Below, in pieces: positions 28,350 to 34,973 of a stretch of 64,000 nucleotides of DNA; position 1 is the stretch's first letter; each line of letters begins with the position of its first letter. A program made the translations under genes and the position numbers. Source of the DNA: Bemisia tabaci (taxonomy: Eukaryota; Arthropoda; Insecta; Hemiptera; Aleyrodidae); assembly GCF_918797505.1 (NCBI RefSeq), contig NC_092796.1, positions 31,568,098-31,632,097 of the forward strand, in the 5' to 3' direction. Under the pieces are notes generated by a model. That model made no database searches. It was not told the origin of the DNA and worked only from the letters and a program-made list of their open reading frames with translations.

Positions 28350-28885
28350 CCAATTCATTTCCCCAGACTTTCTCTGTTACTAGTGACTTGGGCCACCTGT
28401 GTCTAGGAATCCACCTTTCTGTTAATCAATTGGACTACATTTTGCAATTTAGAGCTACATTTTCAAAGACTTTCTCTGTTACTATAGTAACTGTGGCCCC
28501 ACCTGTGTCTAGGAATCCACCGTACTGTTCATCAATTGGACACTGGGGGAAAAAAAACACATTGGATCTAGAGTCCAGACTCTTAAAAACATTGACAAGA
28601 AGAATACTCTTGATTAAATCGGATTTTTGCTTAAATCAAGAACCAAACCTCTTAATTTGAGCGGATTTCCTTTTGATTTAAGCTTAAATCTGATTGAATC
28701 AAGAGTATTTTTTCTTGTCAATGTTTTCAAGAATCTGGACTCTAGATCCAATGCAGGGTGGCAAGTCAAGTTCAATTTCAAAATTCCCTGACTTTTCCCT
28801 GACTTAACAATAAAATTCCCTGACTTTTTGTAGGCAAGAGACCGCGACTTTTTCTGAATACGATTAAATTTCCTGACTTTTTAAA

Positions 28886-29914
28886 GTCATCGACGCGCAG
28901 TTGCACTCAGAATGTTGTGGGTAAATTCGGTGCTGAATAATTGAATGAATTATAGCCTGGAATGCACATCTTTAACTTATTTTGATAAAAAGAGATAACC
29001 ATTTCACAATCAAAGAAAATTCAGAAAAAAAAATTACACACATTAATTAAAATTTTAAATTTTCATTTAACTTCTTAATAATGTATGAAAGGGAAGGAGT
29101 GGCGTACGATGAATCAGTCTCTGTATTAAAATCACTGAAATCGGTCAGCTGCAAAAGCTATGAGATTGTGCCGTAATAGCTACAAAATTTCGTCCTAAGA
29201 TAATAACACTAGCCATTCAGGGAGTACTTTGTAGAAAGATGCTGAACATGGTATGAGGGAGCAAAAACAGAAAGCAAGAAAACAAGATTTTGAACACAGA
29301 AAAAAGTTCATAAATTTATTAAATTAAAAGGAACAAATAAACTTATAGGTCTGGGAGATCAAGAAACTAGCACTTATATTGAAACAAATTAATGCACTTA
29401 ATGCATTTAGAAGAGACACATTTAGAACAACAGATCAATGAAATCATAAAAGTAGTATTGATCTGAGTATGAGTGAACAAGAATACCTAATTGAATTAAT
29501 TAAACAAAACATAGCGAAACTGATACATTTAGTATACTGAGCATAAAAAAGTGGTCAGAGATCCTGAAGATCAAAAAAGTATTGCTATTTTTGATACAGG
29601 CAAACAATAATGCTCGTACGAATTAAATACTTTGCCCTCATGAGAAAAATAATTGAAGAAATATTTGTATTTTCACTACAAAATATTGGGAAAAATGGTT
29701 ACATTTCAAGTGTGAATATGCAGACGTCTGGAACTGAATTTACAACAATGCAGAGACAGGAATGACTTGACACATCCAATAGGTCCGCCGGTGATATCAA
29801 CTGAGCATCTTTTTCATTCCCGGAGATGAGAAAAAGAAAAGAACTGAAGTATTCGAAACTTACCTGAGCACATCCTAGAGCTTTGTCTCCAACAATCCGA
29901 AATTCGGACAGTTC
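28886..29914. other. Interior of layer-2 element, non-coding
   Basis: A+T-rich sequence with no frame of note. Nothing else was recognised. Confidence 0.5.
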
Positions 29915-29939
29915 AGTTCAGCCAGTGCACTATGGTCTG

Positions 29940-30432
29940 GGAGCGCCGAATCGTGGCCAAAAATCCGATTTTTGAAAGTACGAAAATCTGTCAATCGAGC
30001 ATATAATCCTTATCTACATCCTTTAGTAGGTGTGAAATGACCTATCAAATCTTCTGTAATTGTTTTTACGATCAGATACATGGTGGCGAACTTCACATCC
30101 TCGAGGTAAGTAAACAAACGTGAGAATTTAAAGTGCACGTTATCGTGTCTTGCCTTGTGTCGTTTGGTGATAAGTTGGCGTAAATCCCCGATCAAATATG
30201 GAAAAGAAAGGTGAAAGTAAGTACTTTTTGATGGTTTAATCGTTTTTATTATTATGATTAATTTTATGATCACCATGAGACTCCAAAGTTTTGTCCTAAT
30301 TTAGGCAAAAAATTGCCTTCACCTTAAGTTTTAGTTATCGGTAACACGAGGTAACACGTTCTCATTTGTGCAAAAATGTTGCTCATATGTTCCTCTAACA
30401 GGACATCACAGGTTTTTTTGCGTATTTTTGCG
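29940..30432 (+). repeat. Long inverted repeat in layer 4, left arm
   Basis: It matches the reverse complement of 31117-31602 (GTACGAAAATCTG, GATAAGTTGGCGTAAATCCC, AAAGTACTTACTTTCACC inverse, TTTGCCTAAATTA inverse) with scattered differences. The minus-strand frame at 30010-30276 is a shadow of this arm. Confidence 0.75.
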
Positions 30433-30759
30433 TCTGGGGCCTTTTTTGGTCATTTTAGTGAAGGACTTATACGATTTTCTGCGCAATCTGATTTCATTGC
30501 AGAAGGAGATAAGAGAGATGAGACAAGGCCAACATTTGATATAGGGTGATTCATATGTATTTTTGGCTGCTGAATCCGAAAATGATATCAGTTTTTTTCC
30601 AGCACTTGCCTGATTTCCGGAAAATAAAGTTTTTTTGCAAAAAACCTCATTTTTAAGCAAAACAATATTTTCTCCGGAAAAACGACAAATGGTGGATAAA
30701 ACTTAGGTACTTTTTTTTATTCTTCAGCCTGTATACATAATACAAATGTATTAACTCGG

Positions 30760-32576: not shown

Positions 32577-33965
32577 ATATATAATATATAAAGTCGCTTT
32601 ATAACGCACTCTGGCGTTCTACGACACCCAAGCGCCACATATGCCTGTCTTCCCAGAGGTTATCGGGCAACTGACACCGCAACATCTCTTTGTCAACGCC
32701 CTGCCGCCAACCCTTTACGGGACGTCCCCGTCGCCTCTTCCCAGGTGGTACCCAATCCAAAACTTGTTTGGGCAACCTCTCCTCCGACATTCTTTGCACA
32801 TGTCCATACCAGCATAACTGCCTGGACATGACGTCGTGCACGATATCTTTCTCAACCTTCATCACCTGGCGAATTCTCTCATTACGGACACGGTCCCGTC
32901 TCGAAATGCCGGCAGATCGCCGCCAAAAATCCATTTCAGTTGCCCTCAACATTTCTTGCGTTCTTTTCGTCAAAGGCCACACTTCACTACCATAGAGCAC
33001 GATACTTTTAACGATGGCGTCATATATCCGGTGCTTGTTTGCCTTTGAGATGCTCTGATCCCAGAGCACCCCGTTCAGCATCGCGATGGCTCTCCTGCCC
33101 TGGATGATCCTGTCCTTAATTGCTCTATCCATCCTTCCATCCTGATCGAGCCAAACACCGAGATACTTATACTCGTCACACTCTTCGATGCGCCGTCCAT
33201 CCTCAAGCTCTATGCTTTGCCGTTGATGCGCTGCTCCCACGACCAGCTTCTCTGTCTTGGACACACTAACGTCCATGCCCCATTTCCGATATTCTTCGAC
33301 CAACTTCCGCGTCATGTAATCTGCATCTTCCTCATCTTGAGCTACAACGATCTGGTCATCGGCAAAGCATAGAGTATAAAGGGTCTGCCCATCAAGGAGT
33401 GGAACGCCCATTCCTGCAACCTTCTTTTTCCATTCCTCTAAAACGTGCTCTAGGTATACCTTAAATAGTGTTGGTGACAAACAACAGCCTTGTTTTAGCC
33501 CTTTTGTGACGAAAAAACCTCCGGACAACTCTCCACGACATTTAATTTTTGCTATCGTCCCGTTATAAAATGATTTAATTGCCCCACAAGTCCTTTGCTA
33601 AAACCCCTTTTTTCCAAGGCTTCCCAAAGCTTCACTAACGGCACGCTGTCATAAGCTTTCTGAAGATCCACAAACACCAAGTGCAGCTCCTGGCTGACCG
33701 CCCTTTTCTTCTCGATGACCTGGGTAATGGTGAACAAATGGTCGACGGTAGACCTACCGGCTCTAAAACCAGCCTGTTCTTCGGCTTCCTGGCCGCTCCA
33801 AACCTCTTCGACCTTTGCCTTGAGAATTTTACCGTAGACCTTGCTCAAGGTTCCTGTGACCGATATACCTCTGTAGTTGTCGCAATCTTGCTTACTACCT
33901 TTCTTATGACTGGGAGTAATCCAAGATTCCTTCCAATCCTTTGGTATTTCGGAACCATGCAGACA
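32577..33965 (-). mobile_element. 5'-truncated LINE: reverse transcriptase, frameshifted
   Basis: On the minus strand, fingers/palm sequence (KDWKESWITPSHKKGSKQD, NYRGISV, EQAGFRAGRSTVDHLF, FVDLQKAYDSV) ends in a frameshift near 33552-33580. A 309-residue frame (33528-32599) continues with GLKQGCCLSPTLF, the catalytic LCFADDQ, YGSEVWPLTKRTQEMLRATE and a C-terminal RRRGRPVKGW region. The N-terminal endonuclease is absent by 5' truncation. The duplication TTGAGTTCTTCT lies at 32565-32576 and 33966-33977, and the 3' tail is TATATA-rich. It is a non-LTR element; an RTE-like clade is likely but not resolved. Inactive. Confidence 0.92.
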
Positions 33966-34274
33966 TTGAGTTCTTCTTATTGTCTTTTTACTGTTGAATG
34001 CAGTTGAATGTTAAGTACATCGAGTGACGCAATCGTTTTAATTTCCGGCTTATTTACGGGGAAAATAGTGTTGCCAAAAAGGCCTACAAAATATAGATGA
34101 AAAAATATTTTCGATTGTCGAAGCTAAAATTGAGGTTAAAAAGTCGATTTTTGCTTACTTTACCTCATCAAAAAAAATCCCTAGATTTCCTGAAAAATCC
34201 CTAGATCCCTAGAAATTCCGGAAAATCCCTAGATCTAGGGATAAATCCCTAGACATCGGATCACTGAGTTCAGC

Positions 34275-34848
34275 ACCAGCACCACTTCATTTACGATGTT
34301 AGGTTAGGAGGATTTCACCGCCCAGCCATGCAGTTGCACCAACCTTACATGTTTTCTACCAAAACACGGCAGATTCGAACTATGCATAGTATACACCACG
34401 ATCTGCGCGGACCTGACTCGAGGTTATTAATAAAATTGTTTTTATTGGTACACGGTTGTCAACGATTCCCGATCCGCGCGTGTTTCTGTTAGTTCCCCCT
34501 ACCGAAAGCCGCCGGGCGCAACGAAATAACCGACAGGATCATTCTTTTAGTGTGCATAGGTTGGTAAGTCACAACGATGACGGAGGAGTGGGGGACCGAC
34601 GAAAAGGAACGACACCCAACGGAGTCGGACGGAAATGACCGATCGTGGAACACTGTTGCCATGTGGAGGAGGGACGGAACTCTGTTTGCTACGTAATGTA
34701 CACGTTAGTTCATAAGATGCGCTGATGCGCTACGAAAATTCCCTGACCGCGGCAATAATTCCCTGACATTTCCCTGACTTTTCCCGGTCACTCAAAATTC
34801 CCTGACAATTCCCGGTTTTCCCGGTTTTCCCTGACGCTTGCCACCCTG
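34275..34848. other. Right part of layer-2 element
   Basis: Non-coding. It ends in an array of TTCCCTGAC and CCCGGTTTTCC motifs before GCTTGCCACCCTG. Confidence 0.6.
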
Positions 34849-34973
34849 CAATGTGTTTTTTTCCAGTGGACTACATTTTGCAATTTGGAACTACGTTTTC
34901 CGAGACTTTCTCTGTTACTACTGGCTATGGCCACCTGTACCTAGGAATCCACCCTTCTGTTAATCATGGACTA

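What the first reader, a model, noticed from the sequence alone, without database searches (positions are those of the whole stretch)
28541..34868. Five-layer nested transposon whose order of arrival is readable from TSDs
A CACTGG MITE (GA TSD) is split by a CAGGGTGGCAAG element (TSD CAATG). That is split by a hAT-type element (TSD AGTTCAGC), which received a Transib-like element exactly after its first five bases (TSD CAGTG). The Transib-like element in turn contains a 225-bp palindrome (TA TSD). A LINE (TSD TTGAGTTCTTCT) sits beside it in the hAT layer. Excising each layer restores the next sequence outward, so the relative ages of five families follow directly.
Basis: seen in the sequence. 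Interest (0 to 1): 0.75.

Follow-up and report, generated by a model that had tools for sequence, protein, structure and literature searches.

The report
Whitefly transposons nested five deep
A stretch of whitefly DNA holds five mobile elements inserted one inside another, plus a sixth alongside, and undisturbed copies of each host element elsewhere in the genome support the order in which they arrived; it is a clear example of an ordinary process.

Summary
The window lies in Bemisia tabaci. Five elements are nested (CACTGG MITE > CAGGG element > hAT > Transib > 225-bp hairpin), with a LINE as a sibling of the Transib in the hAT layer. All six duplications are exact. Every host family has uninterrupted copies at the same junction elsewhere, and no other copy examined carries the inner insert there, so the order of arrival at this locus stands.

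Three corrections. (1) Family ages do not follow: private substitutions (0 to 8 per layer) cannot rank the layers, and the LINE's order relative to the Transib and hairpin is open. (3) The hairpin family has a 2-bp duplication that is TA in only 16 of 21 copies.

The Transib landing on the hAT's first five bases is explained by target preference: CCAGTGT scores best of 586 sites with a 7-bp motif from 34 other insertions (tied third with a 5-bp motif). Duplicating the five bases left a complete hAT end inside. A related 5.3-kb copy encodes a Transib transposase. Sound, but ordinary.

The parts
28319..35363 (+). Layer 0: degenerate copy or copies of an older ~150-bp hairpin repeat family (arms like CAATTGGACTACATTTTGCAATTTGG) with a ~106-bp repeated unit; interrupted by the CACTGG MITE. 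Outer limits approximate.
   Evidence: Direct repeat 28393/28499 and inverted arms; joined-flank query matches many places across the empty junction; 12 of 12 copies picked from those hits hold the junction
28541..34868 (+). Layer 1: CACTGG...CCAGTG foldback MITE, own sequence 28541-28753 and 34854-34868; TSD GA at 28539-28540 and 34869-34870
   Evidence: uninterrupted copies
28754..34848 (+). Layer 2: CAGGGTGGCAAG...CTTGCCACCCTG element, own sequence 28754-29922 and 34275-34848; TSD CAATG at 28749-28753 and 34849-34853
   Evidence: copies L009-L019; 5-bp TSD in 6 of 7 copies with both ends found, of 11 fetched
29923..34266 (+). Layer 3: non-autonomous hAT-type element, own sequence 29923-29927, 32295-32576 and 33978-34266; TSD AGTTCAGC at 29915-29922 and 34267-34274
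29928..32289 (+). Layer 4: non-autonomous Transib element (CACTATGG...CCATAGTG); TSD CAGTG at 29923-29927 and 32290-32294, a duplicate of the hAT terminus
   Evidence: related transposase-encoding copy L144
30838..31062 (+). Layer 5: 225-bp imperfect palindrome (hairpin MITE); TSD TA at 30836-30837 and 31063-31064
   Evidence: absent from 39 of 39 other Transib copies
32577..33965 (-). Sibling insertion in the hAT layer: 5'-truncated LINE with reverse transcriptase reading frames; TSD TTGAGTTCTTCT at 32565-32576 and 33966-33977
   Evidence: 20 of 20 other copies continue past the window's 5' end; empty site in 16 of 20 hAT copies
34974..35224 (+). Neighbour, not part of the stack: CACGG...CCGTG hairpin flanked by TA, in a sister unit of layer 0

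Best explanation
This is a real nested stack made by at least six separate transposition events. A CACTGG MITE landed in an older hairpin repeat; a CAGGG element landed in the MITE; a short hAT-type element landed in the CAGGG element. Then, in undetermined relative order, a non-autonomous Transib landed on the hAT's first five bases and a 5'-truncated LINE landed in the hAT's middle; a 225-bp hairpin MITE landed in the Transib. Each left a target duplication (shown). The DNA elements were presumably moved in trans by cut-and-paste transposases and the LINE by target-primed reverse transcription (inferred from general knowledge). The Transib site fits its preference for C...G pentamers, and because the duplicated pentamer is the hAT terminus, a complete hAT end was rebuilt inside (shown). 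Whether that hAT can still move is inferred only.
For: Exact duplications for all six. Empty junctions in other copies for every layer. No fetched copy shares an inner insert at the site. Duplication lengths hold across the families: hAT 8 bp exact in 12 of 16 copies with both ends found; Transib 5 bp in 34 of 35; CAGGG element 5 bp in 6 of 7; palindrome 2 bp in 21 of 21. The Transib site ranks 1 of 586 in the hAT with a 7-bp matrix from 34 other copies and ties for third with a 5-bp one; the Drosophila Transib motif is CCANTGG (PMC3276498, passages). A 5,348-bp copy with the same ends encodes a protein matching the solved Transib transposase 6pqn, E 9.4e-77.
Against: The MITE family's 2-bp duplication agrees in only 8 of 14 copies, L024 left out as unreadable. 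hAT copy L037 shows no 8-bp duplication, L044-L046 show 7 of 8 and share one set of flanks, which shows that this hAT family can be carried along inside another amplified repeat, so hitchhiking is possible in principle. Transib copy L060 has unmatched flanks. Searches scored only 40 candidates each. No second assembly, strain or raw reads could be checked.
Confidence: 0.95

Rival explanations
1. The hAT already carried the Transib and/or the LINE elsewhere and then hopped as a composite into the CAGGG element; the nesting of parts would be the same but the order of arrival at this locus would not.
For: A complete hAT end (CAGTGTTCCGAT) lies inside the Transib. hAT copies L044-L046 sit in identical flanks and so were amplified inside something larger.
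Against: None of 39 other scored hAT hits on either side runs into the LINE beyond a 10-base overrun. 0 of 16 other hAT 5' ends is preceded by a Transib end. Of four exact Transib-CAGTG junctions in the genome only the window's is at a hAT end (junctions with a mismatch would be missed). To move as a whole, the hAT would have to use an end with only five of its own bases outside 2.4 kb of Transib (inference).
Confidence: 0.07
2. Assembly artefact: repeats were joined wrongly.
For: All parts are repeats, some nearly identical to other copies.
Against: Every joint coincides with a perfect duplication and with an empty site elsewhere; misjoins would not be expected to give these.
Confidence: 0.02
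3. The order of the layers also gives the relative ages of the families.
For: The outermost MITE's fetched copies are 94-96% identical to the window copy and the LINE's scored copies 99-100%.
Against: 10 of 11 other scored CAGGG hits are 97-100% identical, one is 89%, while the Transib inside it has scored copies of 93-98%; the lists are capped, so this is rough. Private substitutions do not differ between layers (p = 0.31).
Confidence: 0.1

Closest known systems
Nested transposable elements used as insertion chronology (TinT, PMC3014933, passages; REANNOTATE, PMC2672092, search listing only)
   Same: Element-in-element insertions ordered by which one is interrupted.
   Different: This is a single deep stack; TinT uses frequencies of many nestings to order families.
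Transib superfamily (solved transposase 6pqn, known to me as HzTransib; Drosophila hopper and transib2)
   Same: 5-bp duplication, C...G target, and a related copy in the same genome that encodes a matching transposase.
   Different: The window copy is a ~2.1-kb form (palindrome not counted) with a second, inverted copy of its left ~500 bp and no transposase.
hAT superfamily
   Same: 8-bp duplication; CAGTG ends (resemblance recalled).
   Different: A short element (515-560 bp in the 16 measured copies; 576 bp here); no matching transposase was sought.
B. tabaci transposon survey (PMC9143410, passages)
   Same: Lists hAT, Transib (52 copies), CACTA, RTE and other families in this species.
   Different: The passages seen do not describe this stack, and the word nested was not found in its main text.
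Nested transposons in Helicoverpa zea P450 loci (PMC1852546, passages)
   Same: Insect MITE with another element inside; a Transib with a 5-bp duplication in the same study.
   Different: Two deep in the passages seen.

Membership tests
Transib | 5-bp target duplication | tested here: met
   34 of 35 copies with both ends found, of 39 fetched; window copy
Transib | Ends shared with a transposase-encoding copy (CACTATGG-like consensus recalled) | tested here: met
   L144 170-5517 has the same ends; 94% identity over its left 920 bp and 84% over its right 698 bp
Transib | Transib (RAG1-related) transposase in the family | tested here: met
   L144:2349-3638 matches 6pqn over residues 21-401, E 9.4e-77. 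Pfam RAG1 matches it only below the cut-off, E 0.0055, and the Pfam RAG1 genome search found nothing, its controls neither
hAT | 8-bp target duplication | tested here: met
   12 of 16 copies exact, 3 (one shared flank) at 7 of 8, 1 without; window copy exact
hAT | hAT transposase in a copy with the same ends | not tested
   no search was made
Tc1/mariner (for the 225-bp palindrome) | Insertion strictly at TA (general knowledge) | tested here: not met
   21 of 21 copies have matching 2-bp flanks, 16 TA and 5 other (CA, CA, TT, TT, TG)
LINE | Reverse transcriptase, 5' truncation, target duplication | tested here: met
   RVT_1 in both frames, E 1.7e-19 and 3.3e-14; 20 of 20 other copies continue past the 5' end; 12-bp duplication
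LINE clade | Assignment to a clade such as RTE | not tested
   no clade test was made; the protein search gives no clade names
Superfamily of the CACTGG MITE and of the CAGGG element | Matching transposase | not tested
   requests for the CAGGG ends did not complete; none was made for the MITE

The most novel reading that the evidence does not exclude
Transib target preference (C...G pentamers, CCANTGG-like) makes the CAGTG/CACTG ends of hAT elements natural landing sites, and the 5-bp duplication rebuilds the host's terminus. The host hAT would stay mobile and could leave the Transib behind: a low-harm way of nesting in which the guest does not disable its host.
Probability: 0.1. Interest if true: 0.5.

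Novelty: new member of a known kind. Interest (0 to 1): 0.3.

Why it matters
It is an unusually clean stack in a pest insect: every joint has its duplication and its empty site, so it can serve as a test case for tools that untangle nested repeats. It also shows nesting ordering recent insertions that a substitution count cannot order, and a target preference making an insertion look uncannily exact.

Tried and rejected
A further insertion at 31601-32251: the right side of the Transib has ~650 bp beyond the inverted repeat, which looked like an extra layer. But 36 of 39 other copies hold it whole, L065 (cut by the end of the fetched stretch) and L083 in part, L077 not in the stretch fetched; L144, the longer fetch of the same element as L077, has it at its right end. 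So it belongs to the family.

Transposase by Pfam RAG1 search of the genome: nothing, controls neither. A pattern search for the Transib ends (112 matches, listing cut) led to L144 instead.

A habit of Transib to enter hAT ends: only 1 of 4 exact Transib-CAGTG junctions is at a hAT end. Not supported.

Clock dating: private changes 1/228 MITE, 2/1743 CAGGG, 2/568 hAT, 8/2135 Transib, 0/225 palindrome, 1/1389 LINE; not informative (a chi-square on small counts). Used were 14 MITE copies (9 fetched, 5 in the window), 10 of 11 CAGGG, 13 of 20 hAT, 7 (in a second run 16) of 39 Transib, 21 palindromes (20 fetched, 1 in the window), 20 LINEs of 39 hits.

One search scored the hAT with its start one base off and with a 9-bp matrix; it is superseded (5 and 7 bp). 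Its count of C...G duplications (26 of 34) is unaffected.

Paper searches showed no report of this stack in the listings; that is not proof of absence.

Full report
Place. The window is G000:C4:31568098-31632097 of a 610-Mb assembly. The LINE protein search lists Bemisia tabaci proteins on contigs of 52825239, 42783249 and 64051928 bases, the lengths of G000 contigs 7, 9 and 3, so the organism is the whitefly B. tabaci (lineage).

Joints. All twelve duplication copies were read directly and agree in pairs: GA, CAATG, AGTTCAGC, CAGTG, TA, TTGAGTTCTTCT. The given coordinates 28541-34868 are right.

Empty sites. MITE copies run through CCAATG|TGTTTTT in 9 of 9 fetched copies and in five more in the window. 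CAGGG copies run through GACAGTTCAGTTCAGC|ACCAGCACC in 9 of 11; L009, L012, L014 and L017 are exact at the joint and 98.2-100% identical in their matched pieces. hAT copies run through ATTAGTTGAGTTCTTCT|TATTGTC in 16 of 20. 16 of 20 hAT copies had a readable 5' end; none of the 16 is preceded by a Transib end, and none of the 20 loci holds a Transib match. Transib copies lack the palindrome in 39 of 39. The host repeat has the uninterrupted MITE site in the window itself (28411-28460) and in 12 of 12 copies picked with the empty site as query. In the wider searches, each scoring 40 candidates, 28 of 28 other MITE hits and 11 of 11 other CAGGG hits do not cross the junction, and 39 of 39 other hAT hits on each side do not run into the LINE, apart from one 10-base overrun.

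Families. The CAGGG element has 5-bp duplications in 6 of 7 copies with both ends found (ATTTG, AATTC, GAGGA, TATGT, GACAG, GTCAG; L018 unclear); its superfamily is open. hAT copies show exact 8-bp duplications in 12 of 16. Transib copies show 5-bp duplications in 34 of 35, 26 of 34 of the form C...G. L144 is a 5,348-bp copy with the same ends and the duplication CACTG and encodes a protein matching the solved Transib transposase 6pqn (E 9.4e-77). The exact end pattern occurs 112 times in the genome. The palindrome family has matching 2-bp flanks in 21 of 21 copies, 16 of them TA, and an identical copy lies at 21135-21359. The LINE has 39 other scored copies of 99-100% identity; in 20 of 20 fetched, the sequence continues past the window copy's 5' end, so the window copy is truncated. 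The MITE family's 2-bp duplication is less clear, 8 of 14.

Why exactly after five bases. The duplicated pentamer is the hAT end itself. A symmetric matrix from 34 other Transib insertions ranks CCAGTGT first of 586 positions in the hAT and its borders, with 14% of the weight; with the five bases alone it ties for third with two other sites, 5% of the weight. The published Drosophila Transib motif is CCANTGG (PMC3276498, passages). After the insertion, CAGTGTTCCGAT stands complete at 32290. That the hAT came after the Transib is excluded, because the empty CAGGG element has no CAGTG at the site.

Ages. Private substitutions per layer are MITE 1/228, CAGGG 2/1743, hAT 2/568, Transib 8/2135, palindrome 0/225, LINE 1/1389 and cannot be told apart (p = 0.31). 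The inner Transib has more than the CAGGG element around it (not significant, p = 0.20); some of its changes may predate its arrival here (inference). Nesting therefore orders these insertions where the count does not; but it orders insertions, not families. [quoted passage not shown]

Extra layer. The MITE lies in a degenerate ~106-bp repeated unit of a ~150-bp hairpin family. A CACGG hairpin with TA flanks (34974-35224) interrupts a sister unit three bases from the equivalent position.

Verdict. A real and clean stack, of an ordinary kind.

Noticed in passing
21135-21359: A second copy of the 225-bp palindrome, 100% identical to the one in the stack, 9.5 kb away and also flanked by TA.
   Followed up: partly
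34974-35224: CACGG...CCGTG hairpin with TA flanks in a sister unit of the host repeat.
   Followed up: partly
L044-L046: hAT copies with one and the same set of flanks, so this hAT was amplified inside a larger repeat.
   Followed up: no
18271-19041: Weak papain-family (Peptidase_C1) match in a reading frame, E 0.00029, overlapping a ~70% LINE fragment at 18630-19041.
   Followed up: no
L144 1753-3638: Transib copy whose likely transposase region lies in two overlapping reading frames; only the second was matched to 6pqn.
   Followed up: no
4065-4294, 5475-5703, 9705-9931, 10219-10450, 25836-26070: Five further copies of the CACTGG MITE family in the window.
   Followed up: partly
L125: A palindrome copy with matches to the CACTGG MITE on both sides, apparently a second palindrome-in-MITE nesting.
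   Followed up: no
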